Origin: Thermobifida cellulosilytica TB100 | GTDB taxonomy: Bacteria > Actinomycetota > Actinomycetes > Streptosporangiales > Streptosporangiaceae | DNA length: 64,000 nt | Assembly: GCF_001517975.1 (NCBI RefSeq) | Contig: NZ_KQ950183.1 | Location: forward strand, 83,282 to 147,281 | Reading direction: 5' to 3' | Part shown: positions 27,166 to 46,874 of the stretch, piece after piece | Numbering within the stretch: position 1 is the first letter of the stretch | How the letters are laid out: each line of letters opens with the position of its first letter | Position numbers and translations under genes: made by a program | Notes under the pieces: model-generated | Database searches by the model: none | The model's input: the letters and a program-made list of their open reading frames with translations, nothing else | What the model was told of the DNA's origin: nothing

Positions 27166-30100
27166 TCAGACGAGCAGGCGCAGCGCCTCCAGGGCCTTGC
27201 CGCGCACCAGCAGCTCGTGCCGGGTCTGGTTGCGGTAGGTGCGCAGGCAGCCGTAGCAGGACGTCTCCTCGCCGCAGTCGCAGTTCTCCAGCCGCTTCAC
27301 CGCCGCCAGCAGCACCTCGGAGAAGTGCTCGGTGATCCGGGTGCCCCCGCCCGCACCGCCGGGCACCGTGTCGAACAGCACCAGGCTGGTGCCGCGCTCG
27401 CGGCGGTGGTACAGGGTGCCGTCGATGTCGTCGCGACTGATCTCCAGCGCGGCCGAGGCCCCCTCCAACAGCGCGTACAGCAGCGAGTAGCGGGTCTCGG
27501 GCGAGATGTCGTCGCGGTCGAGCTGGAAGCTGCCGGTGAAGGTGATGTCCACGAGGTCGGTCTCGTACTGGTGGGCGAGCGCGAGGCGCTTCAGCGGTCC
27601 GGCGCAGGTGCGGTCCCGTAGCGGGGAGGAATGCTTGCTGGGTTTGCGCGAGGCGAAGCGGTCGCCCCAGCCGCACTGCTCACAGATCCAGAATCCCTGA
27701 CCGCCCGGCCCTTCGGAGAGCGCCACCAGTTGGCCGCGGCTTCCCGCCCGGCAGAGCATCTCGCCTCCCGGATATGAATAGCTACGCTGTGTGGTTAGCT
27801 CGGCGGCCAGGCGCAGCACGTGGGTGGTGCCGTGCCAGGAGCGCTGCGGGGGGACCAGGCCGGCCGCAGCGGTTTGGGGATCGGCCACGAAACCGAACTC
27901 CGGAACGCAGTACCTGGCAGGGGTGCGGGAGTTCTTGGCCGGTTCTTCCCCGCAGGACGAGCAGACCGGGGGGAGGGGAGCCTTGTCCTCCTCGTAGTAC
28001 CTGCAGTTGTCGCACACCCGGTAGTAGGAGAGGGGCAGCCTTCGCTTGGGCAGCAGGTACACGCCGCGCGACGTCCACTTCCTGCCGCCCGCGACGACCT
28101 CGCTGCCCGGCGCGTACTCGTAGATCGCGGAGGTGAGGTCGCGGGACAGTTCCAGGTGCCTGCCCACCGAGTCCTCGGCGTGGCTGGTGCGCAGCTCCAC
28201 GGTGTCCACCGGGAAGCCGTACTTGGGGAGCACGTTGCGGGTGGCCAGGAAGCCGATCAGGGAGCGGTGCTTGATGGTGTTGATGGTTCTCTCGAAGTGT
28301 TCGGCCTTGCGGTACTGGCGTTGCTCGGAGGCTTCCTGGCGGCGGCGCTCGAAGTAGGCCACGTCCTCGGCGACCTCTTCGTGAAGCTTCTCCAGGCGCT
28401 GGCACAGCTTCGCGGCCCACCGGCCGTCGTCCACGCCGAGCTCGCCAGCTATCCGATCGGGAAGGATGCGCCGCAGCGCCGCGCTGATCTCCTCGGGGAC
28501 CGGGGTGAGGAAGGCGGGGACCCGGGTGACCGGCGCGGGGGAGCCGTCGTCGCCGGGCAGGAAGAACGCGCCGACGGTGCGCCAGATCTCCCGGGAATCG
28601 CGGTCCGTGGAGGAGGTCTCCCCGGTGGCGCGGTGCCAGTGCCGGAAGAACGCGGCCAGCGCCACCGAGTGGGCGTGGCGGCGGGCGATACGCTCGTTGT
28701 CCAGCGGCACGTAGGGAGCGCGCACCTGTCCGGCGATCATCTGCTCGGGCTCCTGGTAGCGGGACAGGTCGTGGGAGCGGCGCTGGGCGTACGTGACCAC
28801 CAGGGCGGCCGAGTCGGTGCGCCGTCCGGCGCGTCCGGCGCGCTGCACGTAGTTGGCGGTGGTGGGCGGCATGTTGCGCAGCAGCACCGCCTGGAGTTCG
28901 CCCACGTCCACGCCGAGTTCGAAGGTGGTGGAGCAGGACAGCACGTTGACTTGGCCCTCGATGAAGTTCTCCTGGACGCGGGAGGCTTCCTCGGTGGACC
29001 ACTGCGCGGTGTGCTCCCTGGCGTGCAGCACCACCGGGTTGAGGCTGCGGTAGAGGCGCCGGTAGTGGTCGTCGTCCTCCTCGGGGGCGGGCGGCGTGAA
29101 CGGGTGGAGCGTGCCCGGGCAGTTGAGGGTGGGGCACACCCCGCGCACCGACACCGGGTGCAGGCGGCGGCAACTGTCGCACTGGTAGAGCCGGGTGGCA
29201 GGCGTGACCGGACTCAGTGACAGGAAAGTGTGGTCGACCTGCCAGAGCACGCCGAGGGAACGGTCGGAGACGGGGACCAGCCAGCTTTCCGAGTCGCGGT
29301 GGTGGGCCGCGTCGGTGAGCAGTTGCCACACTCCGCGCAGGATCTTCTCGCCGCGGTGTTTCCGCTCGGTGGCGTCGAGCGTGGGGTCCATTCTGCCGAG
29401 CAGCCTGTCCAGGTAGTTGAGACGGCGGTTGTTCCCCTGGCCGGGCAGCCAGGAGATGACTTTGCGCTTGCGGTCGGGGCCGCTGAGACGTACGTAGATC
29501 GGTCCACGGCGGGGCGCGAACGCCTCGTCGTCGGGGGCCACCCTCTCGGGCATGGTCAGCGCGCCCTGCTGGCGCAGGCTGCGCACGAGTTCGCCGAGCA
29601 GGTCCCACACCTCGTCCTCGTCCAGGCCGAGCTCTCGGGGCAGCGCCGGGGGCAGCCGCGTGCCCTCGGGGCGTTCCATGCGGACGTGCAGCAGGCCGCG
29701 CCCCTCCAGGGACTGCCGGTCGTCGGTGGCGACGAGCTCCCGCATCACCCACAGGCCGGCGGCGTGCTCCCGGCGCTGGCGGGAGACGCGCCGCTCGAAG
29801 TTCCCGGCGCGCGCGGCCCGCTGCGCGGTGTGGCCGATCAGGTCGTCGACCCAGAAGTCGTCGTCGGGGACGTAGCCGTGCTCCAGCCCTTCGAGGATGA
29901 GCCGCCGCTGCTGCAGCAGCGAGTAGCTGTGCTCCAGGTAGGGCGCGAAGAACGCGGCGGCCTGGCGGCTGTCGCTGAACGTGAGGAGTTTGCGGCCCCC
30001 GCCGGGGCGGTCGGCGCGCTGGGCGTCGGGGTCCTCGGGCAGCGCCTGGTAGAGCGCGGTCGCCACCACGGCCGCCGCGGCCTCGTTGCCGCTCTCCAGG

Positions 30101-31902
30101 CGGCGCACCGTGTCAGGGCCGCGTGCCCCGCACGACAGGCAGCCGCTGGGGCGGCCGTTGTTGCTACGCAGCTCCTGCACCGCGCGCGCGGCGCGGCCCG
30201 GACAGCCGGGCAGGCAGGCGCGCGCCGCGGTGCCGAGCGCGCCGCAGCCGACGCACAGGTGGTTGCCCTTTGCGGTGGGCTGTGCGGCGGGCTCCTCCAG
30301 GGTGTCGTCATCCTCGTCGACGGTGATCGGGGTGTTGCCCAGGTGCAGCCACAGGATCTGGTCCTGGGTGCGGCGCTGGGGCAGGAAGCGGACCGCGCCG
30401 TCCTCAGCCGCCGTGGTGCCCACCAGGTAGGTGTCGCCGCAGCGTTTGCAGGCGGCGAGCTCGAAGGCGGGCGCGTGGCAGTCGGGGCAGTGCTCGTGGC
30501 GGGAGAGCCAGACGTGCGGCCCCTTCTCGGACAGGCAGGTGAACGCGCCCTCGGTGGCGCGGGTGAACAGGTGGTAGCGCGCGGAGAGCAGTGGGCTGCC
30601 GTCGGGGTCGCGCACCCGGCTGCCCAGGGCGACCATGGCGGCCAGCGCGGCGGGCTGTACCGCGCCGTCGTCCTCTTCGGTGAAGATTCGCGCGGCCAGG
30701 TCCTCCAGCGGCTGCGGGCCGCCGTCGGCGAGCAGGGTGCGCAGCGTGCGCATGCGCTGTTCGGTGGCGAGCAGCCGGTAGGCGCCGCCGTCGGGGACGC
30801 CGTGCCGCCGGGCCGCGGCACGGAGCTCGGTCTCCGGGGCGGCGGCGTTGCCGATCGCCGCGTAGTCGGCGGCCGACAGCGGCCCCCACGGTTGCCCCGG
30901 AGGATCGGTGCGGTGGGTGGCGGTCACCAGGCCCTGCCGGTCGGGGTCGGTCGCGTCCCACTCGAAGTCCGACTTGAAGAACAGCCGGGACGCGAACTCC
31001 GTGACCTTCTTCGGGTCGTCGCCGACGGTGGCGCTGGTGGCGATGTACTGCAGGCGGCGGCCGGGGGCGACCCGGTCGCGCAGGCGGCGCAGCAGCATCG
31101 CCAGTTCGGCGGCTTTGGCCCCGTCGTAGACGTGCGCCTCGTCCAGGGCGACGAACCGCCAGTGCCCGGCGTGCTCGCCCTCGAACAGGTCGAGGTCGTC
31201 GGGGCGCAGCAGCAGGTACTCCAGCATCGCGTAGTTGGTGAGCAGCAGGTGCGGCGGCCTGCGCTGCATCTGCTCGCGGCTGATGAGCTCGTTGGGCAGC
31301 GGGTCGCGTCGGTGCAGGGTACGGAAGAGTTCCCGGGCATCCCGCTCGCTCTCCTTGGTCTCGCCGGTGTAGCGGCCGAAGGTGATGTGCGGGCTGCCGG
31401 AGAGCAGTTCCCGCAGCCGTTTGAGCTGGTCGTTGGCGAGCGCGTTCATCGGGTACAGCAGCAGCGCCCGCACGCCCGGCCCGAGCTCGCCGCGCCGGTG
31501 CTGCTCCTCCAGCTCGTTGAGGACGGGCAGCAGGAAGCTCTCGGTCTTGCCCGACCCGGTGCCGGTGGCCACCACCAGGTCGCGTCCGGCGCGGGCCTTG
31601 CGGATCGCCTGCTCCTGGTGCAGGTAGAGGGGCCGGTCCAGGTGGATCGCGGGGCCGCCGGGCGCGGCGAAGGAGGGCGACAGCACGCCTTCGGCGACCA
31701 GTTGGCGCGGGGTGGCGCCGGTCCGGTAGGGCGGGGTGGCCTCCAGCAGCGGCCCCTTGGTCAGCAGCGGGCTGGTGCGGATCTGCCGGTCCAGGGCGTC
31801 GGCGAGTCCGCGGTCGCGCAGCGGCAGCAGGGAGCGCAGGTAGCGGCGGTAGCTGTCGCTGATCAGGGCGCTGACGCCGAGGGGGTCCAGGGTGGTGGTC
31901 AC
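27166..31902 (-). CDS. Large DEAH-box helicase with DUF1998-type zinc domain (candidate antiviral DruE-like)
   Basis: A 1578-aa superfamily 2 helicase. Near the N-terminus, VATGTGSGKTESFLLP (Walker A, about 111-126), LLYPMNALANDQL, LLTNYAMLEYLLLRP, DEAH (254-257) and SATV (290-293) are intact. The second RecA domain has FSDSRQAAAFFAPYLE and motif VI as QRAGRAGRR. Between them are cysteine clusters of zinc-finger type (CPDCHAPAFELAACKRCG, CVGCGAL, CLSCGARG). Later come CDNCRYY and CSSCGEEP. The C-terminus NCDCGEETSCYGCLRTYRNQ is a DUF1998/MrfA-type zinc site. GTG 31902 overlaps the upstream gene by 4 bases. Helicases of this build occur in Druantia (DruE), DISARM and the MrfA repair helicases; the large partner protein favours defence. 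Confidence 0.85.
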   Translation of the reverse strand: MTTTLDPLGVSALISDSYRRYLRSLLPLRDRGLADALDRQIRTSPLLTKGPLLEATPPYRTGATPRQLVAEGVLSPSFAAPGGPAIHLDRPLYLHQEQAIRKARAGRDLVVATGTGSGKTESFLLPVLNELEEQHRRGELGPGVRALLLYPMNALANDQLKRLRELLSGSPHITFGRYTGETKESERDARELFRTLHRRDPLPNELISREQMQRRPPHLLLTNYAMLEYLLLRPDDLDLFEGEHAGHWRFVALDEAHVYDGAKAAELAMLLRRLRDRVAPGRRLQYIATSATVGDDPKKVTEFASRLFFKSDFEWDATDPDRQGLVTATHRTDPPGQPWGPLSAADYAAIGNAAAPETELRAAARRHGVPDGGAYRLLATEQRMRTLRTLLADGGPQPLEDLAARIFTEEDDGAVQPAALAAMVALGSRVRDPDGSPLLSARYHLFTRATEGAFTCLSEKGPHVWLSRHEHCPDCHAPAFELAACKRCGDTYLVGTTAAEDGAVRFLPQRRTQDQILWLHLGNTPITVDEDDDTLEEPAAQPTAKGNHLCVGCGALGTAARACLPGCPGRAARAVQELRSNNGRPSGCLSCGARGPDTVRRLESGNEAAAAVVATALYQALPEDPDAQRADRPGGGRKLLTFSDSRQAAAFFAPYLEHSYSLLQQRRLILEGLEHGYVPDDDFWVDDLIGHTAQRAARAGNFERRVSRQRREHAAGLWVMRELVATDDRQSLEGRGLLHVRMERPEGTRLPPALPRELGLDEDEVWDLLGELVRSLRQQGALTMPERVAPDDEAFAPRRGPIYVRLSGPDRKRKVISWLPGQGNNRRLNYLDRLLGRMDPTLDATERKHRGEKILRGVWQLLTDAAHHRDSESWLVPVSDRSLGVLWQVDHTFLSLSPVTPATRLYQCDSCRRLHPVSVRGVCPTLNCPGTLHPFTPPAPEEDDDHYRRLYRSLNPVVLHAREHTAQWSTEEASRVQENFIEGQVNVLSCSTTFELGVDVGELQAVLLRNMPPTTANYVQRAGRAGRRTDSAALVVTYAQRRSHDLSRYQEPEQMIAGQVRAPYVPLDNERIARRHAHSVALAAFFRHWHRATGETSSTDRDSREIWRTVGAFFLPGDDGSPAPVTRVPAFLTPVPEEISAALRRILPDRIAGELGVDDGRWAAKLCQRLEKLHEEVAEDVAYFERRRQEASEQRQYRKAEHFERTINTIKHRSLIGFLATRNVLPKYGFPVDTVELRTSHAEDSVGRHLELSRDLTSAIYEYAPGSEVVAGGRKWTSRGVYLLPKRRLPLSYYRVCDNCRYYEEDKAPLPPVCSSCGEEPAKNSRTPARYCVPEFGFVADPQTAAAGLVPPQRSWHGTTHVLRLAAELTTQRSYSYPGGEMLCRAGSRGQLVALSEGPGGQGFWICEQCGWGDRFASRKPSKHSSPLRDRTCAGPLKRLALAHQYETDLVDITFTGSFQLDRDDISPETRYSLLYALLEGASAALEISRDDIDGTLYHRRERGTSLVLFDTVPGGAGGGTRITEHFSEVLLAAVKRLENCDCGEETSCYGCLRTYRNQTRHELLVRGKALEALRLLV

Positions 31903-34900
31903 GCGGTCGGCTCCTTGAACAGTCGGGCGCGTTCGATTCCGGCGAGGGTGAGTTCGGCGAGGACGAGGTCGACGGCGGCGAGGTCGGGGGCCGCGGCGGC
32001 CAGTTCCGCCCACTCCCGCTGGTAGCGGTCCACCAGCCGTCGGCAGTCGTCCACGTTCCGGGCGGCCAGGCGGGCGGCGGCGGCCAGCGCGACGGACAGG
32101 GCGGGCAGGTCGCGCCAGGACCCGGGTCGGTCGGGGCGGCGGCTGTCGATCAGGGCGCGTGCCGCCGTCCGGTAGGCGTCGGGGAGCCGGTCGCACACCG
32201 CGGCGGTCAGCTTCAGGACGGTGGCCGCCTGGGAGCGCACCCCGTGCAGCGCGGTGCTGTTGCGCACTTTGAACAGGTCGAGGACGGCCTGGGAGCGGCT
32301 GTCGGCGTCCAGCAGCGCCCGGGGCATCACCCGGGCGGCCCGCCACACGGCCCTGAACTGCGCCTCGGGCATGCGGGCGAGGTGTTCGGCGGAGGCGCCG
32401 AAGCGGCCGACGCGGGCGTGCGGGTCGTCCCGGCCCGCCAGCAGCTCCGCGGCGGCGGTCCCGCAACTGTGCTCCAGCTCCTCCAGCAGTTCGGCGTGCT
32501 CGGGCGGCTGCCGGGCTGGGTCGGTGGGGATGCGGGGCAGCAGGTCGCTGGTGGCCAGGGCGGCCGCGGCGGGCAGCCGCTGCCACAGCCGGACCGCCTC
32601 GTCCACGGTGACTCTGTCGTGCTGGGGTGCGGCGGCCAGGCCGCTGGCGATGAGGGCGCGGACGCTGTCGGCGGGGGCCAGCCCGGCGGAGCCGTGGGCG
32701 AGCAGCGCGGTGACGGGGTGTTCGCCGAGGACGCGGGCGCAGGCGTCGACGGCGGCGGGGTCCACGCCGACGGCGGTGAGCCGGTCGGCCAGGCCCACGA
32801 CCCGCCACAGCCGGGCCGCGGTCTCGTCGGTGACGCGCAGCCGGGCGGCGTCGGCCTCTCCGGCGAGGACCCGGGAGAGCAGTTCCTCGTCGGGGTCGTC
32901 GGAGGCGGGGACGCCGGGCGCGGGGCAGGTGAGCCGGTTGGCGTCGCGCCGGTCGGGCCAGTCGGGCCACTCCGCCGCCGACCACGGGTCGTCCACGGCC
33001 AGCAGCACCTCCAGCGGGCCGCCGTCGCGCAGGTCCTCGGGCAGTTCGACCCGGCCGTCCTCGGACACCGGCACGACCCGGGGCGTCCGCCACGGCGCCC
33101 GGTGCGGGTAGAGGGCGGCGTCGATTCCGGGCAGGCCGGGGAAGTCCGCCAGGACGACGGCGCCGTCCTCCTGGTGCGCCCCGGTGGCCAGGCGGCGCGG
33201 GCTGACCACGGCGACGGGCAGGACCCGGCCCCGGTAGGGGGCGACGATCCGCAGGTGCCGGTGGACGGCGGCGGTGTCGCCGATCTGGGCGATCGGGTAG
33301 CGGACGGTGGCACCGCCCCGGTAGGCGGCGGGTTCGACCCGCTGCACCGGCTCCTCGCCGGAGAGCACGGTCAGCGGCCCGGGCAGCTCCCCGCCCTCCT
33401 CGCCCTCGGGGAGGCGCAGCAGCAGGTCGCCGATCTCGGTCACGGTCTCGGTGGCCAGCCGCAGCGGCTGGGGGCGCCACTGGGGGCTGGGGTCGCCGGT
33501 GCACAGCACGGCCAGGTGGGGCGGGCGGACGGCGACGGCCAGCTCGGCGGCGGCGGTGCGCAGTTGCGCCGCCAGCACGGCCTCGCCGAACCCGAGCCGC
33601 TGCGCCTCCGGTTCGACGTCCATCCCGTCGGGGCCGGACAGGACGGCGTCGGCCGGTTCCAGCCCGGCGGGGGCGAGTGCCCGGAAGGCGGGGTCGTAGC
33701 GGACGGCGAGCCCTTCGGCGACGGTGAGGTGGCGGCGCAGCCCGCGGCCGAGGGGGCCGCGCACGGTGAGCAGGAACGAGCCGAGCACGGGGCGGGGCAG
33801 GCCCTCCAGCGGGCTGACGCGCTGCCCGCTGCGGCCGGTGGTGCCGGCCAGCAGCTTCCCGGTGTCGGCGTGCAGCACGTCGATCCGCCAGTCCACGGCC
33901 TCGCCCTCGGCCTCGGGCAGCACCACGACGGGCAGGTCGGCGTGGACGGGCGAGCCCGCCGCGGTGGTCACGCCCCGCACGGGGGCGGACTGGTCGAGGT
34001 GGGGGCGGGCGCGGCCGTGCACGGGGCGTTCGGGGCAGCCCTCCAGGCCGATCCGGTCGCCGCGGCGCAGGGTCACCCGCAGCAGCGTCCACCCCTCCCA
34101 CCCGTAGGGGGTGTCGCCGGGCACGTCCTCGTCGGTGCCGCCGTCGGGGCGCAGCAGCGCGCGGTCGGCGGGGTGCAGCAGCCACAGGCGGCCGGGCGGC
34201 AGGGCGAGCCGCGGGTCGAGCAGGTCGCCGTCGTCGGTGAAGACGAGCAGCGGGTCCTCGGGGTCGACCAGCGGCAGGAGCTCGGTGAACCCGGTGTCGC
34301 CGAGGGTCACGCGCACGGTGCGGCTGGGCTCGGGCAGCGGGAACAGGGTGGGGGAGGCGGCGCCCGTGGCGGCGGCCCACCGGCCGTGGCCGCGCACCTG
34401 GTGGGTCCCGTGGTCGGTGGTGATGTGCCAGCGCACGATCTGGTCGTCGCTGTCGCCGATGACGGGCAGGACGACGTGGACGCCGTGCGCGTGGGGGTCG
34501 AGGCGCAGCCGGGGCCGGGCGGGCTGCTGCCGCCGGGGGCCGCCGGCGCGGCGGGCGGGGGCCACGCCCCTGGCGGCGGCCTGTTCCAGGGCCTCGCGGG
34601 CGGGGGCGAGGAAGCGCGCGGGCAGGCCCACGGAGCGGCAGTCGGTGTCGGGGTCGTCGCGGAGCCGGTCGAGCAGGTCAAGGCAGCGGTCGACGACCTC
34701 CAGGGCGTAGTCGCCGCCCTGGGCGATGAACCGGCGCGCGGGCACGTCGAGGCTGTTGAGGCGGTGCCGCCCGGACACGGCCCAGTGGTGGAAGGCGGGC
34801 GCGTCCAGTCCGGGGGTGCGTGCGCTGCGCTCCAGCAGCAGCGCGAACACGTCGCGCAGGCAGTAGGTGGGGATGCCCGCGTGCATGAGGATCGGCGTGA

Positions 34901-35303
34901 CGTAGGGCAGGTGCTCGTCGGGGAAGGCGTCCAGGCCGAGGTCGTGCAGGGCGTCCAGGAAGGCCCGGCCCCAGGCGGCGTAGTCCTGCCGGGGCGCGGG
35001 CACCTGGGCGGTCTCCCACAGGGCGGGCCAGAACGCGCCGTGGGAGTAGCGGGCGGTGGCGACGCCCGCGGTGACGGCGGCCATGCAGGCGGGCCAGCGG
35101 GACAGGTTGGGGGCGCGTCCCCGGTCCAGGGCCCTGGTGAAGAGGCGGCCGAGCGCGACCGCGGCCTGGTCCAGGTGTTTCTGGGGCAGCACGGCCTCGC
35201 TGACGAGGGAGCGCGACTCCAGGCGGGGCCGCCACTCGGCTTCGCGGATGTCGAGCAGTTCGGTGGGGGTGACCTGGCGGGGCTTTCGGTCAGGGGAGGG
35301 CAT
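31899..35303 (-). CDS. 1134-aa protein of unknown family, partner of the DEAH helicase
   Basis: I cannot name a domain. Residues about 1-240 are helical (TPTELLDIREAEWRPRLESR onward). The middle (about 260-800) alternates beta-rich segments with proline-rich turns, as in a repeated sandwich fold. The last 300 residues are again helical and leucine/alanine rich. There is no signal peptide, membrane segment, nuclease or ATPase motif that I can see. ATG 35303 has TTGGAG five bases upstream, and a consensus promoter lies about 85 bases upstream. The GTGA overlap with the helicase means the two are made together. By size and order it corresponds to DruH of Druantia type III, but homology is untested. 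Confidence 0.75.
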   Translation of the reverse strand: MPSPDRKPRQVTPTELLDIREAEWRPRLESRSLVSEAVLPQKHLDQAAVALGRLFTRALDRGRAPNLSRWPACMAAVTAGVATARYSHGAFWPALWETAQVPAPRQDYAAWGRAFLDALHDLGLDAFPDEHLPYVTPILMHAGIPTYCLRDVFALLLERSARTPGLDAPAFHHWAVSGRHRLNSLDVPARRFIAQGGDYALEVVDRCLDLLDRLRDDPDTDCRSVGLPARFLAPAREALEQAAARGVAPARRAGGPRRQQPARPRLRLDPHAHGVHVVLPVIGDSDDQIVRWHITTDHGTHQVRGHGRWAAATGAASPTLFPLPEPSRTVRVTLGDTGFTELLPLVDPEDPLLVFTDDGDLLDPRLALPPGRLWLLHPADRALLRPDGGTDEDVPGDTPYGWEGWTLLRVTLRRGDRIGLEGCPERPVHGRARPHLDQSAPVRGVTTAAGSPVHADLPVVVLPEAEGEAVDWRIDVLHADTGKLLAGTTGRSGQRVSPLEGLPRPVLGSFLLTVRGPLGRGLRRHLTVAEGLAVRYDPAFRALAPAGLEPADAVLSGPDGMDVEPEAQRLGFGEAVLAAQLRTAAAELAVAVRPPHLAVLCTGDPSPQWRPQPLRLATETVTEIGDLLLRLPEGEEGGELPGPLTVLSGEEPVQRVEPAAYRGGATVRYPIAQIGDTAAVHRHLRIVAPYRGRVLPVAVVSPRRLATGAHQEDGAVVLADFPGLPGIDAALYPHRAPWRTPRVVPVSEDGRVELPEDLRDGGPLEVLLAVDDPWSAAEWPDWPDRRDANRLTCPAPGVPASDDPDEELLSRVLAGEADAARLRVTDETAARLWRVVGLADRLTAVGVDPAAVDACARVLGEHPVTALLAHGSAGLAPADSVRALIASGLAAAPQHDRVTVDEAVRLWQRLPAAAALATSDLLPRIPTDPARQPPEHAELLEELEHSCGTAAAELLAGRDDPHARVGRFGASAEHLARMPEAQFRAVWRAARVMPRALLDADSRSQAVLDLFKVRNSTALHGVRSQAATVLKLTAAVCDRLPDAYRTAARALIDSRRPDRPGSWRDLPALSVALAAAARLAARNVDDCRRLVDRYQREWAELAAAAPDLAAVDLVLAELTLAGIERARLFKEPTA

Positions 35304-39805: not shown

Positions 39806-39830
39806 GCTTCGGCCGGGAGGCCCGGCAGCC
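39806..39830 (-). repeat. Palindromic repeat element, copy C
   Basis: Matches the reverse of the copy A core at 24 of 25 positions. The next 40 bases resemble those after copy B. Confidence 0.8.
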
Positions 39831-40099
39831 TTGAGGTCTGCTTTGGTGCTTGAGGGGTTGTTGGCTTTCCGTAGCGCTTCGCGTCCGGGTGCTGGTCCTT
39901 GCTGGTCTGCTGCCTGCCCCTGCCGGTCTGCTCCCTGCCGGGTTCTCCGGTGTGTGGTCGGTGGTGGGGGTGGTGGGTGTCCTGGCTGAAGCACGTGCCC
40001 GTGCCAGGGCTTGGCTTGTCTGTCTGAATCGGTGCTCGACCTGAAAGGGACGCCCGTCTTGCGGAGGGCTCAGCGTCCGGGAACCTGTCACCTGACAAT

Positions 40100-40150
40100 C
40101 CCTCCGACAGGGGAGCGGGCCTGAAGGCTGCCGGGCCTTCCGGCCGAAGC
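40100..40150 (+). repeat. Palindromic repeat element, copy D
   Basis: Same orientation and layout as copy A, with the 25-base core at 40126-40150 identical to it. Confidence 0.8.
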
Positions 40151-40263
40151 AGACCTGGGGTTTGACGCCTCGGCCCGCCCAAGGCCCGTCCCCAGCATCC
40201 AGGAAGGCTCAGAGCACACAGACGAGCGCGGACTGAGGACAACGTCACTGTTTTGTGAAAACC

Positions 40264-40292
40264 TTGTCAACACCAACATGGTGTGCTGTAAT
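40264..40292 (+). promoter_or_regulatory. hsdM promoter with palindrome in the spacer
   Basis: TTGTCA (40264-40269) and TGTAAT (40287-40292) are spaced by 17 bases. The spacer contains a perfect inverted repeat, ACACCA and TGGTGT with a 3-base centre (40270-40284), placed ideally for a repressor of the restriction-modification operon. The leader to GTG 40445 is about 145 bases. Confidence 0.7.
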
Positions 40293-40444
40293 TCTCTCGC
40301 CCCTGAGGCGTGGGCGTTCCCGGACCGGCCTCAACTCAGGCCGTTCGATTCGGTGATTCTCCCGCAAGGCAGTGCCCGTTCTGCCAGAATCGCCCCATCC
40401 TCGAACCCCTCAGCCAGACCGCCTGACCGGCGTGGAAGGACACC

Positions 40445-42448
40445 GTGGACAACAGCAAGCACCAAGAGCTGGTGAGCTTCATCTGGTCGGTCGCCGACCT
40501 GCTGCGCGGCGACTACAAGCAGTCCGAGTACGGCAAGGTCATCCTGCCGTTCACGGTGCTGCGACGCCTGGACTGCGTCCTGGAGCCGACCAAGGAAGCG
40601 GTCCGCGAGGCCCACGAGAAGTGGAAGGACAAGCCCGTCCACCACAGGATGCTGCTGAAGGCCGCGGGGCAGAGCTTCTACAACACCAGCCCGCTCACCC
40701 TGGAACGGATTGCCGCCGACCCCTCCCAAGTCGCCAAGAACCTCACCACCTACATCGGCTCCTTCTCCGCCAACGCCGCCGAGGTGCTGGAGAAGTACGA
40801 CTTCCTCAACCAGATCAAGCGGCTGGACGAGGCCGGGCTCCTCTACCAGGTGGTGGGCAGGTTCGCCGAGCTGGACCTGCACCCCGACCGGGTGTCCAAC
40901 CTCCAGATGGGCTACGCCTTCGAGGAGCTGATCCGCAGGTTCTCCGAGATCTCCAACGAGACCGCCGGTGAGCACTTCACCCCGCGCGAAGTCATCCGCC
41001 TCATGGTGAACCTGCTGCTCGCCCCCGACGAGGAACGTCTGAGCAGGCCGGGCATCGTCCGCAGAGTCCTCGACCCGGCCTGCGGCACCGGCGGCATGCT
41101 CACCGAGGCCCACGACCACATCCGCGCCCACAACCCGCAGGCCAACGTGGAGGTGTTCGGGCAGGAGCTCAATGCCGAGTCCTGGGCGATCTGCCGTTCC
41201 GACCTCATGATCAAGGGGCAGGACCCGGAGAACATCGGGTTCGGCAACTCCTTCAGCCACGACCGGCACTACGGCAAGTTCTTCGACTACATGCTTGCCA
41301 ACCCGCCGTTCGGCGTGGAGTGGAAGAAGGTCAAGGCAGAGGTGGAGGACGAGCACGAACGCCTCGGCTACTCCGGCCGCTTCGGTGCCGGGCTGCCGCG
41401 CATCAACGACGGGTCGCTGCTGTTCCTCCAGCACATGATTGCCAAAATGAAGCCGGTCCAGACGGACGCGGACGGGCAGACCGACGGCGGCAGCCGCATC
41501 GCGATCGTCTTCAACGGCTCGCCGCTGTTCACCGGGGCCGCCGGATCGGGCGAGTCGAACATCCGCCAGTGGATTCTGGAGAACGACTGGCTGGAGGCGA
41601 TCGTCGCCCTCCCCGACCAGTTGTTCTACAACACCGGCATCTCCACCTACTTCTGGATTCTCACCAACCGCAAGGACGCGGCGCACAGGGGCAAGGTCGT
41701 GCTGATCGACGCCCGCGAGCACTTCGTGAAGATGCGCAAGTCCCTCGGTGAGAAGCGCAAGGAGATCTCCGCCGAGCAGATCGAGGAGCTGACCCGCCTC
41801 TACGCGGACGCGCTCGCCGTCGCCGAAGACCCCGAACACCCGCTGCACGACAAGGTCAAGGTGTTCGACAACGAGGACTTCGGCTACCAGCGCATCACCG
41901 TGGAACGGCCGCTGAGGCTGCGGTTCGAGGTCACCGAAGAGGCACTGGACGCGCTCAAGGCGGCCAAGCCGCTGGCGAAGTACGACTACCGAGACCAGTT
42001 GATCGAGGCGCTTCGCCCGCTGGTCGGCCAGGAGCCGTGCTACGCCAAGGCCGAGTTCGCCAACCGGCTCCGCGGGGCGCTCGCCGAGGGAGGCGTGCCC
42101 AAGCCTCCGGCGAGCGTGGACAAGGCGATCTGGGCCGCGGTTTCTGTCCGAGACCCCAAGGGTGAGGTGCAGACCAAGCGCGGGGGAGCGATCGAGCCCG
42201 ACCCGGAGCTGCGGGACTACGAGAACGTGCCGCTCAAGGAAGACGTCGACGCCTATATGGAGCGTGAAGTCCTGCCGCACGTCCCGGACGCCTGGGTGGA
42301 CCACGACAAGACCAAGATCGGCTACGAGATCCCGTTCACCCGGTACTTCTACAGGTACGTTCCGCCGAGGCCGCTTGAGGAGATCGACGCCGAGTTGGAC
42401 GCGCTTGAGACAGAGGTTCAGGACCTGCTGCGGAAGGTGAAGAAGTGA
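40445..42448 (+). CDS. hsdM: Type I restriction-modification DNA methyltransferase subunit HsdM
   Basis: N6-adenine methyltransferase subunit of a type I restriction-modification complex. The N-terminal HsdM helical domain covers residues about 1-170, the SAM-binding motif DPACGTGGML is near 215-224 and the catalytic NPPF is near residue 285. At 667 aa it is longer than the usual 500-550 aa, with an extra C-terminal region containing a DALETEVQDLLRKVKK coiled coil that probably contacts HsdS. GGAAGGA precedes GTG 40445. The stop overlaps hsdS by 4 bases. Confidence 0.95.
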   Translation: MDNSKHQELVSFIWSVADLLRGDYKQSEYGKVILPFTVLRRLDCVLEPTKEAVREAHEKWKDKPVHHRMLLKAAGQSFYNTSPLTLERIAADPSQVAKNLTTYIGSFSANAAEVLEKYDFLNQIKRLDEAGLLYQVVGRFAELDLHPDRVSNLQMGYAFEELIRRFSEISNETAGEHFTPREVIRLMVNLLLAPDEERLSRPGIVRRVLDPACGTGGMLTEAHDHIRAHNPQANVEVFGQELNAESWAICRSDLMIKGQDPENIGFGNSFSHDRHYGKFFDYMLANPPFGVEWKKVKAEVEDEHERLGYSGRFGAGLPRINDGSLLFLQHMIAKMKPVQTDADGQTDGGSRIAIVFNGSPLFTGAAGSGESNIRQWILENDWLEAIVALPDQLFYNTGISTYFWILTNRKDAAHRGKVVLIDAREHFVKMRKSLGEKRKEISAEQIEELTRLYADALAVAEDPEHPLHDKVKVFDNEDFGYQRITVERPLRLRFEVTEEALDALKAAKPLAKYDYRDQLIEALRPLVGQEPCYAKAEFANRLRGALAEGGVPKPPASVDKAIWAAVSVRDPKGEVQTKRGGAIEPDPELRDYENVPLKEDVDAYMEREVLPHVPDAWVDHDKTKIGYEIPFTRYFYRYVPPRPLEEIDAELDALETEVQDLLRKVKK

Positions 42449-43668
42449 ACTGGCCCAGGATCCCTTTGCGTAGGTTGTTTCGGGTTGTCAACGGAGGGAC
42501 ACCGACCTCTGATCCTGAAAACTGGAACGGCAGCATCCCGTGGGCCACGCCAGTCGACTTGGGATCGGTTTCGGGGAAGCTGAACTCTACAAGGCGTACA
42601 ATCACAGAGAAAGGGGCCAGGACGGGATCTACGGTCGTTCCTGCTGGCTCGATCCTGATTTCGACAAGGGCACCCATAGGATATACGGCTATTACTGGTG
42701 TCCCTCTGGCGTTTAACCAGGGTTGTAGAGCGCTTGTTCCGACTGGTGAAGTTGATGCCAGGTTCTTTTGTTATCAGTTGGAAAGTATGAAAAATGCTCT
42801 GCAATCGCAGGGTTTGGGTTCCACTTTCTTGGAGCTCTCCTCGGAGGCTTTGGCGGCGCTTCCTATTGTTAATCCTCCGCTGGATGTTCAGGGGAATATT
42901 GCTAATTTTCTTGATTCTGAGACAAGGGGTATCGATCGTCTTAGTGGCCTGATATCTCGTCAGCTTGATCTGCTCGAAGAGCGGAGACAGTGGACGCTTG
43001 ACGAAGTTTGGCGTCGTGCTGGTAGGGCTCAGTGGAAAAAGCTTGGATATGCAACTCTTCTGGTTACAAGCGGACCTCGTGGCTGGGGTGGATATCTTGA
43101 TGATGATGGGGAGATTTTCTTCCGCAGTGCTAATCTGAATAGAAGGTCCCTTGTGCCTGATCTGTCTGATGTGGCTTATGTCCGACTTCCTGCTGAGGCC
43201 AGAGTTGAGGCTGTCAGGTCGAGAATATCTTCCGGTGATGTTCTTGTGGGTATCACCGGGGCAAACTCCGGATGGGTTGCCTTGGCCGATGCATCGGTCT
43301 CTGGTGGTTATGTGAGTCAACATGTCAGCCTGGTCAGGCCCGACTCCAGGATTCTTGACGGTCGCTGGCTCGGCTACATGATTGCGTCCTCCGTGGTTCA
43401 GAGTGAACTCATGGGAAGCCAGTATGGGGGAACTAAAACCCAGTTGTCGCTTCCAGACATCCGCAACATCAGGATTCCCGATATTCCTCTGGAAGAACAG
43501 AGGAGGCTGGTACGTGAGGTTGAACGAACAGAAGAACTGATTAACCGGCAGAAGAGCCTGCGTAAGAAACAACTCTCCCTCCTCGCCGAACGCCGCCAGG
43601 CCCTCATCACCGCCGCCGTCACCGGTCAGATCGACGTCACCACCGCCCGGGGAGCCGACCTGTCATGA
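42445..43668 (+). CDS. hsdS: Type I restriction-modification specificity subunit HsdS
   Basis: DNA sequence recognition subunit, 407 aa, with two target-recognition domains. The central spacer helix runs around GIDRLSGLISRQLDLLEERR (near residues 160-180), and the second around EEQRRLVREVERTEELINRQ with LLAERRQALITAAVTGQIDV at the end. Bases about 42600-43550 are far poorer in GC than the flanking genes, while the first 100 and last 130 bases are GC-rich. This mosaic suggests the recognition domains were swapped in from elsewhere. The overlaps with hsdM (GTGA) and hsdR (ATGA) are intact. Confidence 0.93.
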   Translation: MNWPRIPLRRLFRVVNGGTPTSDPENWNGSIPWATPVDLGSVSGKLNSTRRTITEKGARTGSTVVPAGSILISTRAPIGYTAITGVPLAFNQGCRALVPTGEVDARFFCYQLESMKNALQSQGLGSTFLELSSEALAALPIVNPPLDVQGNIANFLDSETRGIDRLSGLISRQLDLLEERRQWTLDEVWRRAGRAQWKKLGYATLLVTSGPRGWGGYLDDDGEIFFRSANLNRRSLVPDLSDVAYVRLPAEARVEAVRSRISSGDVLVGITGANSGWVALADASVSGGYVSQHVSLVRPDSRILDGRWLGYMIASSVVQSELMGSQYGGTKTQLSLPDIRNIRIPDIPLEEQRRLVREVERTEELINRQKSLRKKQLSLLAERRQALITAAVTGQIDVTTARGADLS

Positions 43669-46600
43669 GTCCTGTCCACGATGAACGCTCTTTCGAGGAG
43701 GCCGTCGTCGCCGCGATGACCGCCTCCGGTGGCTGGCGGCTGGGGTCCGCCGCCCACTACGACGCCGAGCTTGCGCTCGACACCGCCGAACTGTTCGCGT
43801 TCATCGGGGACACCCAGGGCGACGCCTGGGAGCGCCTCGTCCCCTACTACGGCGGCGACCAGGCCGCCGCCCAGCAGGGCTTCCTCAAGCAGCTCACCAA
43901 GGAGGTCGACCGGCGCGGCACGCTGTCCGTGCTCCGCGAGGGGTTCAAGGACCGGGGGGTGCGGTTCCGGCTCGCCTACTTCAAGCCGTCGCTGGCCGCC
44001 GCCGCGGACTCCTTCGCCGAGTACGACGCCAACCGGCTCACCGTGGTCCGGCAGCTCCGCTACTCCGCGGACGGCTCCGACCGGGGCAACGCGCTCGACC
44101 TCGTGCTGTTCGTCAACGGGCTGCCGGTGGCCACCGCCGAACTGAAGAACCCGATGACCGGGCAGACCGTCGAGGACGCCAAACGACAGTACCGCTTCGA
44201 CCGCAACCCGATGGAGGCGCTGTTCGCCCGCCGCGCCTTCGTCCACTTCGCCGTCGACCCCGACCAGGTGTTCCTCACCACCCAGTTGCGCGGCAGGGAC
44301 ACCCGCTTCCTGCCGTTCAACACCGGCTCGGCCGGGCCCGGCCGGCCCGGCGGTGCGGGCAACCCGCCCGCCCCCGACGGCGGCTACCGCACCTCCTACC
44401 TGTGGGAGCGGGTGTGGCGGCGCGACGAGTGGCTGGACCTCCTCGAACGGTTCCTGCACGTCGAGGAGAAGAAGACCGACCGGGGCCGCACCTCCCGGAC
44501 GCTGATCTTCCCCCGGTTCCACCAGTGGGACGCGGTGCGGCGGGTGACCGCGCACGCCGCCCGGTACGGCGCCGGGCACAACTACCTCGTCATGCACTCG
44601 GCCGGGTCCGGCAAGTCCAACACCATCGCCTGGCTGGCGCACCGGCTGTCGTCCCTGCACACCCCCGCCGACCCCGCCGAGCTCGACCCGGAGGCCCGCG
44701 CGCGCGGCCTGGAGCCCAACACGCCCGTCTTCGACAAGACGATCATCATCACCGACCGGACCGTCCTGGACCGCCAGCTCCAGGACACCGTGGGCGGCTT
44801 CCAGCAGACCGAGGGCCTGGTGGTGCGGGTCGACGGCCGCCACGGCTCCAAGTCCGAACAGCTCGCCCGGGCGCTGTCCGGCCGCACCGGGCGCATCGTC
44901 GTGGTCACCCTCCAGACGTTCCCCGCCCTCCTCGACTACCTGCGGCGCGAGCCCGCCGAGATCCGCGGCGGCCGGTTCGCGGTCATCGTGGACGAGGCGC
45001 ACTCCTCCCAGTCCGGCGACGCCGCCGCCGACGTCAAACGGGTGCTGCGCGGCCTCGGCCTGGACGCCGACGACGACACCGACATCGCCGAGGGCGCCGA
45101 CCCCACCGAGCGGGCGCTCACCGAGTCCGCGAAGGCGCGGGGCCGCAGCCGCAACCTGTCCTACTTCGCGTTCACCGCCACCCCCAAGCACAAGACCCTG
45201 GAACTGTTCGGGGAGTGGGACGCCGAGGCACAGCAGTACCGGCCGTTCCACACCTACTCGATGCGCCAGGCCATCGAGGAGGGCTTCATCCTCGACCCGC
45301 TGCGCAACTACGTCACCTACAAGTCCTACTTCCGGTTGGTGCGCCAGGACCCCCACGACCCCGAGGTGGACCCGGACAAGGCGAGCTCGCTGCTGGCCCG
45401 CTTCGCCTACCTCAACCCGGCCATGCTTGCCCAGCACGCCGAGATCATCGTGGAGCACTTCCGCGCGCACACCGCCGGGCTGCTGGGCGGGCGCGCCAAG
45501 GCCATGGTCGTCACCCGGTCCCGGGAGAACGCGGTGCGGCTGTACCGGGCGCTGCGTAGCTACATCGCCGACCGCGGCTACCCCGACCCGGGCGTGCTCG
45601 TCGCGTTCTCCGGCTCCCTGAAGCTCGCGGGCGAGGCCGAGGAGCTCACCGAGTCCGCGGTCAACGGGTTCCCCGAGGGGGAGCTGCCCGGACGGTTCGC
45701 CTACACCGCCGCCGACGACCGCAACGCCGCCGCGCGCCGCGCCGCCGGGAAGCGCGAGTACCGCATCCTCGTGGTGGCCGAGAAGTACCAGACCGGCTTC
45801 GACCAGCCGCTGCTCACCACCATGTACGTGGAGAAGCCGCTCAAGGGCATCGCGGCCGTGCAGACCCTGTCCCGGCTCAACCGCACCCACCCCCTCAAGG
45901 CGCAGGAGGACCTGTTCGTCCTCGACTTCGTCAACGAGGCCGAGGACATCCAGGCCGCGTTCCGCCCCTTCCACGAGGAGGCGGTCACCGCCGGCACCGA
46001 CCCCAACCTGCTCTACGAGGCGCAGGGCCGGGTCATGGAGCCGCCGATCCTGCTGCCCGGGGAGATGGCCGAGTTCGCCGCCGCCTACCTGGACGCGCGC
46101 CGGGAGGACGGGCGCTCCGGGAAGCACGCCGAGCTGCACACCCTCACCACCCCGGCGGTGGAGCGCTACTGGGAGCTGTACCACGGCGACGAGGCCGACC
46201 GGGCCACGGCCGAGCGGTTCCGCGCCGACCTGACCGACTACATCCGCAAGTACGGGTTCCTCGCCCAGGTCGTGCCCTACACCGACCCCGAACTGGAACA
46301 GCTCTACCTGTTCGCCAAGCACCTCGCGCCCCGGTTGCGCGGCAGCGGTGACGGGAGCGTGGACATCGGCGAGGTCGACCTGAGCCACCTGCGGGTCACC
46401 AAGACCGGCGAGCACAACCTCAGCCTGGACGCCGAGGGCGAGCAGGCGCTGCCCGGATTCTCCGACCAGGCCGGGGCGGGACCCGACGAGCCGGAGAAGA
46501 TGCTGCTGTCGGAGATCATCGCCGCGCTCAACGAGCGCTTCGGCCAGTGCCTCTCGGAGGCCGACCGGCTCATGGTCGAGGAGCGGCTGGCCGCCGCCAT

Positions 46601-46829
46601 GGGCAACCCCGACGTGCAGTTGGCGGCCGTCGCCAACTCCGACGAGGAGGCGTTCGCGCACGTCTTCGACCCGGTGATGGAAGACGTGATGCTGGAGCGC
46701 GCCGAGGCCAACAGCACGTTCACCGACCGCTACTTCGGCGACGACGAGTTCCGCAGCTCCCTCAACAACAGCATGCGCCGCGCCGCGTTCCGCCTGCTGC
46801 GCCGCCAGCACGGCGTCACCGACCGCTAG
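43665..46829 (+). CDS. hsdR: Type I restriction endonuclease subunit HsdR
   Basis: Motor and nuclease subunit, 1054 aa. The PD-(D/E)xK nuclease core is seen as GLPVATAELKNP near residue 160. The helicase motifs are HSAGSGKSNTIAWLAHRL (Walker A, about 310), TDRTVLDRQLQ, DEAHSSQSG (about 441), FTATPKHKTLELF and QTLSRLNRTHP. The C-terminal helical domain ends the protein. All key residues look intact, so together with hsdM and hsdS this is a complete system. ATG 43665 overlaps the hsdS stop. Confidence 0.95.
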   Translation: MSPVHDERSFEEAVVAAMTASGGWRLGSAAHYDAELALDTAELFAFIGDTQGDAWERLVPYYGGDQAAAQQGFLKQLTKEVDRRGTLSVLREGFKDRGVRFRLAYFKPSLAAAADSFAEYDANRLTVVRQLRYSADGSDRGNALDLVLFVNGLPVATAELKNPMTGQTVEDAKRQYRFDRNPMEALFARRAFVHFAVDPDQVFLTTQLRGRDTRFLPFNTGSAGPGRPGGAGNPPAPDGGYRTSYLWERVWRRDEWLDLLERFLHVEEKKTDRGRTSRTLIFPRFHQWDAVRRVTAHAARYGAGHNYLVMHSAGSGKSNTIAWLAHRLSSLHTPADPAELDPEARARGLEPNTPVFDKTIIITDRTVLDRQLQDTVGGFQQTEGLVVRVDGRHGSKSEQLARALSGRTGRIVVVTLQTFPALLDYLRREPAEIRGGRFAVIVDEAHSSQSGDAAADVKRVLRGLGLDADDDTDIAEGADPTERALTESAKARGRSRNLSYFAFTATPKHKTLELFGEWDAEAQQYRPFHTYSMRQAIEEGFILDPLRNYVTYKSYFRLVRQDPHDPEVDPDKASSLLARFAYLNPAMLAQHAEIIVEHFRAHTAGLLGGRAKAMVVTRSRENAVRLYRALRSYIADRGYPDPGVLVAFSGSLKLAGEAEELTESAVNGFPEGELPGRFAYTAADDRNAAARRAAGKREYRILVVAEKYQTGFDQPLLTTMYVEKPLKGIAAVQTLSRLNRTHPLKAQEDLFVLDFVNEAEDIQAAFRPFHEEAVTAGTDPNLLYEAQGRVMEPPILLPGEMAEFAAAYLDARREDGRSGKHAELHTLTTPAVERYWELYHGDEADRATAERFRADLTDYIRKYGFLAQVVPYTDPELEQLYLFAKHLAPRLRGSGDGSVDIGEVDLSHLRVTKTGEHNLSLDAEGEQALPGFSDQAGAGPDEPEKMLLSEIIAALNERFGQCLSEADRLMVEERLAAAMGNPDVQLAAVANSDEEAFAHVFDPVMEDVMLERAEANSTFTDRYFGDDEFRSSLNNSMRRAAFRLLRRQHGVTDR

Positions 46830-46874
46830 CCCGCCGGGCGCGACTCCGCCCGGCCCCGGTGCCACGGCCGCCGC

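What the first reader, a model, noticed from the sequence alone, without database searches (positions are those of the whole stretch)
27166..35303. Candidate two-gene antiviral system: unknown 1134-aa protein plus 1578-aa DEAH helicase
The pair is transcribed from a consensus promoter and overlaps by 4 bases. The helicase has intact ATPase motifs, several cysteine pairs and a DUF1998-type C-terminus; the large partner has no domain I can recognise. Size, order and helicase build resemble Druantia type III (DruH-DruE), and parts recall DISARM and MrfA repair helicases. It lies 5 kb from a complete type I restriction system, as in a defence island. The partner may be a new family or a far relative of DruH.
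Basis: partly seen in the sequence, partly recalled or inferred. Interest (0 to 1): 0.75.

Follow-up and report, generated by a model that had tools for sequence, protein, structure and literature searches.

The report
Nuclease-less Druantia III-like antiphage pair
Two neighbouring genes in a Thermobifida-like bacterium encode a large DNA helicase and a partner that is very probably a distant form of the known antiphage sensor DruH, so the pair is most likely an ordinary member of the Druantia III defence systems, while its relatives show the partner losing a domain where the pair becomes joined to another defence system, Wadjet.

Summary
The two genes are real: on the minus strand, 1134 aa then 1578 aa, overlapping by 4 bases. 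The helicase is a DruE-type YprA-family helicase with intact motifs that ends at its DUF1998 zinc domain, so it lacks the C-terminal PLD nucleases of E. coli DruE. The partner matches no PADLOC, Pfam or NCBIfam model, but profile-profile alignment links it collinearly to DruH/YjiT (score 55.2; best of 60 shuffles 27.2), and its AlphaFold model has the DruH layout. The genes share strand and order at 58 of 58 loci examined that show both. Actinobacterial Druantia III is antiphage in Mycolicibacterium smegmatis (PMC13316683) and a mostly nuclease-less Druantia III-like branch is in print (PMC12458937), so the window pair is a new member of a known kind. The surprise lies in relatives. In one well-supported clade the partner has lost its C-terminal helical domain, and JetA2-JetB2-JetC2 (Wadjet II) follow DruE directly in 9 of 9 intact loci where this can be seen (9 of 10 with one damaged locus), against 0 of 42 loci with the full-length partner. 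The searches made found no description of this arrangement in the papers held.

The parts
31899..35303 (-). DruH-like partner, 1134 aa, first gene of the pair
   Evidence: ORF; no PADLOC/Pfam/NCBIfam model; remote collinear homology to DruH/YjiT; AlphaFold2 model pLDDT 84, pTM 0.61
34572..35303 (-). partner residues 1-244, N-terminal helical region; its first part (1-146) is found in the medium and short forms too
34851..34883 (-). partner residues 141-151, motif HAGIPTYCLRD; H141, G143, P145, L149 and D151 invariant in 29 family members; faces EGGLP of DruH in the alignment
32904..34520 (-). partner residues 262-800, array of Ig/FnIII-like beta sandwiches
31914..32903 (-). partner residues 801-1130, C-terminal helical domain; lost in the sister clade that carries Wadjet II
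27166..31902 (-). DruE-type YprA-family SF2 helicase, 1578 aa, no C-terminal nuclease domain seen
31543..31557 (-). Walker A GSGKT (residue 116), identical in 59 of 59 aligned DruE
31132..31143 (-). DEAH box (residue 254), identical in 59 of 59
28822..28845 (-). motif VI QRAGRAGR (residue 1020); GRAGR in 58 of 59
27244..27477 (-). DUF1998/MrfA zinc-binding domain (residues 1476-1553); the protein ends 25 residues later
31899..31902 (-). 4-base overlap of partner stop and helicase start
40445..46829 (+). type I restriction-modification operon hsdM-hsdS-hsdR; neighbour, not part of the pair; hsdM and hsdR homologues lie beside the pair in Nocardiopsis, none matched in the fetched stretches of three Thermobifida relatives

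Best explanation
A two-gene Druantia III-like antiphage operon, most probably of the mostly nuclease-less branch that I take to be Druantia III-B. The first protein is a divergent DruH: a helical N-terminal region, an Ig-like array and a helical C-terminal domain. It senses infection, probably by binding a phage virion or tail protein. It then licenses the second protein, a DruE helicase that loads on 3' single-stranded tails of phage DNA and blocks circularisation or replication, ending in phage loss or cell death. This DruE has no nuclease domain of its own, so DNA damage would have to come from DruH, from host nucleases, or from unwinding alone. Shown here: both ORFs, the DruE identity, intact motifs, absence of a recognisable nuclease domain, the remote DruH homology and layout, conserved pairing, and defence genes nearby. 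Inferred from published systems: sensing, activation, DNA target and outcome.
For: PADLOC DruE models 378-622 bits, the next system 97. PDB relatives 9tu7_Y (E 1.7e-88) and 9wae_A, of which 9tu7 is full-length kin of E. coli DruE. Partner family against eight proteobacterial DruH/YjiT: score 55.2, collinear, far above controls. AlphaFold2 layout agrees with the published DruH description (PMC13192584, section 13 read). Same strand and order in 58 of 58 loci, counting the window: 49 adjacent by aligned ends, 6 more adjacent by ORF coordinates, 3 split by a three-gene insert. Of 15 close DruE homologues in 246 Actinomycetes genomes, 14 have the partner; the fifteenth lies at a contig end. The partner diverges faster than DruE: 32-53% against 50-64% in 24 other actinobacterial full-length loci, 25-34% against 47-50% in 16 of a second genus, as published for DruH (PMC13192584). 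Type I methylase, PglW, HmaC and type IV restriction models match proteins beside such pairs. M. smegmatis DruH 1132 aa + DruE 1667 aa is experimentally antiphage (PMC13316683, section 6 read).
Against: None of 29 partner-family members matches any PADLOC model even at E 10, although E. coli YjiT matches 12 DruH models. hhalign probability is only 50-65%, and with a single YjiT it is not convincing (E 0.59 and 0.023). The solved DruH (9tud) could not be compared by fold. MSMEG_1253 itself was not found. In Thermobifida the pair is in 4 of 4 genomes and holds its chromosomal place in at least two of the three relatives, which is also what a housekeeping pair would show.
Confidence: 0.82

Rival explanations
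1. A housekeeping DNA-repair helicase of the MrfA/SftH type, with a chance or accessory neighbour.
For: DUF1998/MrfA zinc domain; present in 4 of 4 genomes of the genus at a shared chromosomal place in at least two of the three relatives; SftH (MSMEG_6160) can stand in for DruE in M. smegmatis (PMC13316683).
Against: PADLOC DruE scores far exceed all others. The solved YprA chain 6znp matches at E 1.2e-19 against 1.7e-88 for 9tu7. The partner is patchy (27 of 150 family genomes, 20 of 394 class genomes) and the two genes stay together in 58 of 58 loci examined.
Confidence: 0.07
2. A new defence system whose helicase is DruE-like but whose partner is not related to DruH; the resemblance is convergent multi-Ig architecture.
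For: No DruH model matches; PDB and viral fold hits are generic Ig/FnIII arrays.
Against: The profile-profile match is collinear from residue 40 through both the helical N-terminus and the Ig region, and scores twice the best of 60 shuffles. Gene order and size equal DruH-DruE.
Confidence: 0.11
3. Same operon, but defence is mainly against plasmids or other incoming DNA rather than phages.
For: The sister clade is joined to Wadjet II; that Wadjet acts on plasmids is recalled.
Against: Published Druantia III assays show phage defence (PMC13316683, PMC13192584); no Wadjet II gene was matched in the window.
Confidence: 0.15

Closest known systems
Druantia III-like/III-B branch (PMC12458937, sections 5, 7, 26 and passages read; representative GIH50614.1)
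   Same: YprA-family DruE, most frequently without a nuclease domain.
   Different: That the mostly nuclease-less branch of the text and the 'III-B' of the legend are the same is my reading. The representative could not be fetched, so placement of the window there is inferred. The text read does not describe the DruH partner; the words Wadjet, Hsp70, SMC and DruH do not occur in its main text.
Druantia III of Mycolicibacterium smegmatis, MSMEG_1253/1254 (PMC13316683, sections 6 and 15 read)
   Same: Two genes, DruH 1132 aa then DruE 1667 aa with DEAD, Helicase_C and DUF1998, no canonical nuclease. Partner-family homologues occur in 16 of 248 genomes of a genus that looks like Mycobacterium, each beside a DruE in the 16 loci fetched.
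   Different: MSMEG_1253 was not found among the genomes held, so its membership in the partner family is likely but not tested. Mycobacterium-like partners are 24-33% identical to the window protein.
E. coli Druantia III, DruH(YjiT)-DruE (PMC13192584, sections 5, 9, 13 read; PDB 9tu7, 9tud)
   Same: Gene order, DruE helicase core, N/C helical + Ig-like layout of DruH.
   Different: E. coli DruE carries two C-terminal PLD domains (2114 aa in L052); the window DruE ends at DUF1998. DruH similarity is seen only profile to profile.
ARMADA, DISARM, Dpd YprA-family helicases
   Same: Helicase core and DUF1998 (lost in canonical Dpd, PMC12458937).
   Different: DpdJ and DrmA models score far lower; no ARMADA model was available to test; none of their partner genes was recognised in the two-gene operon.

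Membership tests
Druantia III (broad: DruE + DruH pair) | DruE: YprA-family SF2 helicase with DEAH, Helicase_C and DUF1998 | tested here: met
Druantia III (broad: DruE + DruH pair) | DruH homologue of about 1100 aa directly upstream on the same strand | tested here: met
   position; homology by profile-profile only, (distant)
Druantia III (PADLOC models) | match to a DruH3 profile | tested here: not met
   0 of 29 family members at E<=10; positive control YjiT matches 12 models. So it is called Druantia III-like, not a PADLOC Druantia III
Druantia III-A (E. coli type) | two C-terminal PLD domains in DruE | tested here: not met
   protein ends 25 aa after the zinc domain; no HxK(x4)D motif
Druantia III-B | separate helicase branch, mostly without nuclease | tested here: inconclusive
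   no nuclease domain seen; the branch representative was not available for a tree
Druantia III (broad: DruE + DruH pair) | DruH fold | tested here: inconclusive
   same domain layout (against PMC13192584); solved DruH 9tud did not appear in the fold search, library up to 2026-04-08
Druantia III (broad: DruE + DruH pair) | antiphage activity needing both genes | not testable with these tools
   shown for M. smegmatis in PMC13316683
MrfA/SftH repair helicase | YprA-type core without conserved defence partner | tested here: not met
   partner beside it in 58 of 58 loci examined

The most novel reading that the evidence does not exclude
Nuclease-less Druantia III-like systems are a portable sensor-helicase core that swaps effectors. 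In the window the DruH-like partner keeps its C-terminal domain and works as a two-gene system. In one monophyletic sister group the partner has lost that domain (496-728 aa) and the pair has become the front of a co-directional operon with Wadjet II, DruH(short)-DruE-JetA2-JetB2-JetC2. JetD2 follows in 5 of 5 genomes of one family; in another family no JetD2 was found after JetC2 in 3 of 3 genomes with enough DNA beyond it. The Druantia pair would then act as a phage-triggered DNA-loading front end for the Wadjet SMC motor, giving one system against phages and plasmids.
Probability: 0.45. Interest if true: 0.78.

Novelty: new member of a known kind. Interest (0 to 1): 0.5.

Why it matters
PADLOC's DruH models miss all 29 members of this partner family that were tested, so Druantia III is probably undercounted in Actinomycetota, and a DruE called there without DruH may well be a complete system. 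The natural loss of the DruH C-terminal domain, tied to gain of Wadjet II, makes an open question directly testable: which part of DruH senses, which part cuts, and how a DruE without a nuclease defends the cell.

Tried and rejected
Looked for the partner on viral contigs with the single protein and with A2: no relatives. YjiT on viral contigs: none. Fold searches of the partner against PDB by Foldseek, VIA-align (best Z 7.5, not above the level the tool calls common) and the viral library gave generic Ig/FnIII/macroglobulin-type arrays with low TM-scores; solved DruH did not appear among the rows shown. Profile search of A2 in PDB sequences: best E 0.087, judged chance. Comparing published M. 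smegmatis mutant positions with Mycobacterium-like homologues gave a suggestive but weak match (best case L109: DruE 1668 aa, 5 of 8 residues at offset 0; DruH 5 of 11 at offset -21, including D1108 = window D1112, D in 26 of 29). I do not rest a claim on it. M. smegmatis itself was not recognisable among 19 hits of 396 genomes. PF09983 was first used for JetD and is not the type II family; PF09664 was then used; that DUF2398 and DUF2399 are JetB2 and JetD2 is recalled, while PADLOC itself labels DUF2397 as JetA2. The context survey is qualitative: it lists the first 25 of 112 and of 65 families, not distinct genes; the control is 124 of 155 called proteins from 15 of 18 random regions (cut to stay under the size limit); the gene calls are mechanical. 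Its JetA2/JetC2 hits come from L048 and L114, two loci of the Wadjet-linked clade, so they are not independent support. Not every hit was fetched: 6 of 27 family hits (G005, G032, G055, G076, G087, G097; several are fragments) and 7 of 19 were not examined for a DruE neighbour. One of the 20 class hits (G279, E 8.8e-4, 56 residues) has no DruE in 20 kb. L071 has its partner in three frames, so that copy may be broken.
Full report
What is there. On the minus strand the window holds two overlapping genes, a 1134-aa protein (31899-35303) followed by a 1578-aa helicase (27166-31902), sharing 4 bases. The genus is Thermobifida by inference: the partner of a same-genus genome lies on a contig of 44,686 bases, the length and match of the record titled Thermobifida fusca NBRC 14071.

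The helicase. PADLOC places it with DruE (DruE3 622 bits, DruE1 610 bits); DpdJ (97), BrxHI/BrxHII (95) and DrmA (53) are far below. Pfam finds DEAD, Helicase_C and the MrfA zinc-binding domain. GSGKT and DEAH are identical in 59 of 59 aligned DruE, and GRAGR of motif VI in 58 of 59. The zinc domain ends 25 residues before the C-terminus and there is no HxK(x4)D motif. E. coli DruE continues for two PLD domains (PMC13192584, section 9 read; PMC12458937, passages of section 8 seen). Of 61 DruE entries aligned to past query residue 1500 (some genomes counted twice), none continues more than 115 residues beyond the alignment, too little, in my judgement, for the two PLD domains.

The partner. PADLOC, Pfam and NCBIfam (E<=1) and PDB sequence search (E<=10) give nothing. 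Relatives occur in 4 of 4 genomes of the genus, 27 of 150 of the family, some as fragments, 20 of 394 of the class, one of them a weak fragment, and 16 of 248 of a second genus that looks like Mycobacterium (name inferred), plus two Chloroflexi/Anaerolineae metagenome contigs at 26%. None of 29 aligned members matches PADLOC even at E 10, whereas E. coli YjiT matches 12 DruH3 models and NCBIfam YjiT_fam. Eight proteobacterial DruH proteins from named records form profile A3. Against the partner profile A2, hhalign gives score 55.2, E 5.9e-5, probability 65.5%, collinear 41-645 against 40-656; the opposite direction gives 51.2 and 49.6%. Reversed profiles give 20.6-22.3 and the best of 60 block shuffles 27.2. 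Against this: with a single YjiT the 15-row profile A1 gave E 0.59 and A2 gave E 0.023.

Fold. AlphaFold2 on A1 gives mean pLDDT 84 and pTM 0.61: helices 13-244, beta sandwiches 262-800, helices 800-1130. Foldseek and VIA-align find Ig/FnIII-type arrays over the middle, and the viral library likewise. PMC13192584 (section 13) describes DruH as helical N- and C-terminal regions around alpha/beta domains, with three Ig-like domains. The layout agrees; the direct comparison with 9tud was not possible.

Pairing. Among loci that I examined and that show both genes, strand and order are the same in 58 of 58, the window counted. Aligned ends show 49 directly adjacent; six more (L072, L073, L110, L111, L148, L153) are adjacent by ORF coordinates; three (L037, L039, L064) hold an insert. 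Seven duplicate entries were dropped before this count. Not every hit was fetched (see Tried and rejected). Of 18 class genomes with a DruE-like hit at E<=1e-40, 15 hits are close; 14 of these genomes have the partner and the fifteenth ends with its contig 44 bases upstream of DruE. The other three, and a second helicase of the window's own genome, are distant YprA homologues without the partner. DruE is 50-64% identical to the window's and the full-length partner 32-53% in 24 other actinobacterial loci; in 16 loci of the second genus the values are 47-50% and 25-34%.

Surroundings. Nucleotide alignment shows the pair at a shared chromosomal place in Thermobifida, with left-flank matches in L031 and L032 and right-flank matches in L031, L032 and L033. 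No match to the restriction operon appears in those three stretches; in L032 only 82 bases separate the blocks that flank it (window 39826 and 46862). In Nocardiopsis L034, L035 and L055 a homologous hsdM and hsdR lie next to the pair. The neighbour survey of 142 proteins at 18 loci gave, among the first 25 families, type I methylase, Wadjet JetA1, JetA2 and JetC2, PglW, type IV restriction and HmaC. The control (124 of 155 proteins, from 15 of 18 random regions of the same genomes) gave mostly Orf5, WYL, PD-T4-6, HEC-06 and GlgB-type models, with single type II methylase and JetC2 hits. The JetA2/JetC2 hits come from two loci of the Wadjet-linked clade below.

Size classes and Wadjet II. Besides full-length partners there are medium (714-728 aa, no C-terminal helical domain) and short (496-667 aa, matching residues 1-146 and 348-703) forms. 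The C-terminal domain was not found anywhere in 12 loci searched. Downstream of DruE in these loci lie DUF2397 (JetA2), DUF2398 (JetB2) and an SbcC-like JetC2. JetA2-B2-C2 follow DruE on the same strand, with 56-151 bases between aligned ends, in 9 of 9 intact loci where the contig goes on; L045 and L116 end inside DruE. L112, a damaged locus (partial DruE, first partner segment not found), has no JetA2 in the 3.5 kb beyond; counting it makes 9 of 10. None of 42 distinct full-length loci with at least 1.5 kb visible downstream has JetA2 (47 distinct entries, 1 without DruE and 4 with too little downstream DNA). One of the dropped duplicates, L069, has a partial JetC2-like stretch 4.7 kb away on the other strand. 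The ten short/medium DruE are one clade with support 1.0, so this is one evolutionary event, not nine.

JetD2 and Wadjet I. JetD2 (PF09664) follows JetC2 in 5 of 5 genomes of the window's family. In the four genomes of the other family no JetD2 homologue was found beside JetC2; one of these contigs (G281) ends 0.4 kb after JetC2, so 3 of 3 can be judged. Two of the four carry PF09664 elsewhere in the genome. As a check I searched Wadjet type I JetA (PF11855) in 35 genomes, 33 of them with full-length partners: 18 have it, and it lies near the pair in two, G546 (L151) and G620 (L158), upstream and on the opposite strand, not behind DruE. So Wadjet I can be a neighbour, but the joined operon was seen only with Wadjet II and the shortened partner.

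A second insert. In L037, L039 and L064 three genes lie between partner and DruE: an unknown 487-556-aa protein, a 272-297-aa protein, and an Hsp70 fused to a Zc3h12a-like NYN RNase. The same three genes occur without the pair in L191-L193; L040 has two of them divergently beside the pair, and L059 also holds matches to two. They look like a separate module that nests here. In 150 family genomes the first gene occurs in 6, 3 of them at the Druantia locus.

How it works, with likelihoods. Sensor-activated helicase: DruH-like partner detects infection, DruE engages 3'-tailed phage DNA. In M. smegmatis a minor tail protein activates DruH-DruE and phage DNA fails to circularise (PMC13316683). In E. 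coli DruE prefers 3'-overhangs and forks, and dimeric DruH nicks DNA (PMC13192584). I put 0.82 on a Druantia III-like identity and about 0.6 on sensing by the partner's Ig region. The source of DNA cleavage, if any, is open.

Known or new. The two-gene actinobacterial Druantia III and a mostly nuclease-less Druantia III-like branch are in print, so the window pair is a new member of a known kind. A DruH subfamily outside the models and the Druantia-Wadjet operon were not found in the papers held: searches, and word searches inside two papers. The survey papers listed were seen as listings, not read, so they could hold it.

Noticed in passing
L046-L050, L113-L115, L117 (extended in L223-L231): Wadjet II genes JetA2-B2-C2 directly downstream of DruE in intact loci where the DruH-like partner lacks its C-terminal domain; JetD2 present in one family (5 of 5) and not found in another (3 of 3 with enough DNA).
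   Followed up: yes
L037:8066-12605, L039:4386-8804, L064:13398-17933; also L191-L193, L040, L059: Three-gene module of an unknown protein, a 272-297-aa protein and an Hsp70-NYN RNase fusion, nested between DruH-like partner and DruE in three loci and free-standing in three others. One paper search listed one paper, not read.
   Followed up: partly
window 39827-46861 and L032:14503-14585: The type I restriction operon is a presence/absence segment between Thermobifida genomes, yet homologous hsdM and hsdR lie beside the pair in Nocardiopsis.
   Followed up: partly
L119:8910-17528 (own genome, contig C1): A second YprA-family helicase (1790 aa, about 30% identical to the window DruE) followed by a 1076-aa gene on the same strand, possibly another defence system.
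   Followed up: no
L044:1-3233, L110:2-4777, L111:3-4409, L153:13828-16998: Further open frames with similarity to the helicase within several kilobases of the pair, suggesting several helicase genes in one island.
   Followed up: no
L151, L158: Wadjet type I JetA (DUF3375) lies upstream of the pair on the opposite strand in two Mycobacterium-like genomes; in one a second, broken piece is present.
   Followed up: partly
L071:9905-13381: The partner homologue of Nocardiopsis halotolerans lies in three overlapping frames, so this copy may be broken or mis-sequenced.
   Followed up: no
L068: A partner-family gene on a contig labelled as a Bifidobacterium breve metagenome bin, most likely mis-binned.
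   Followed up: no
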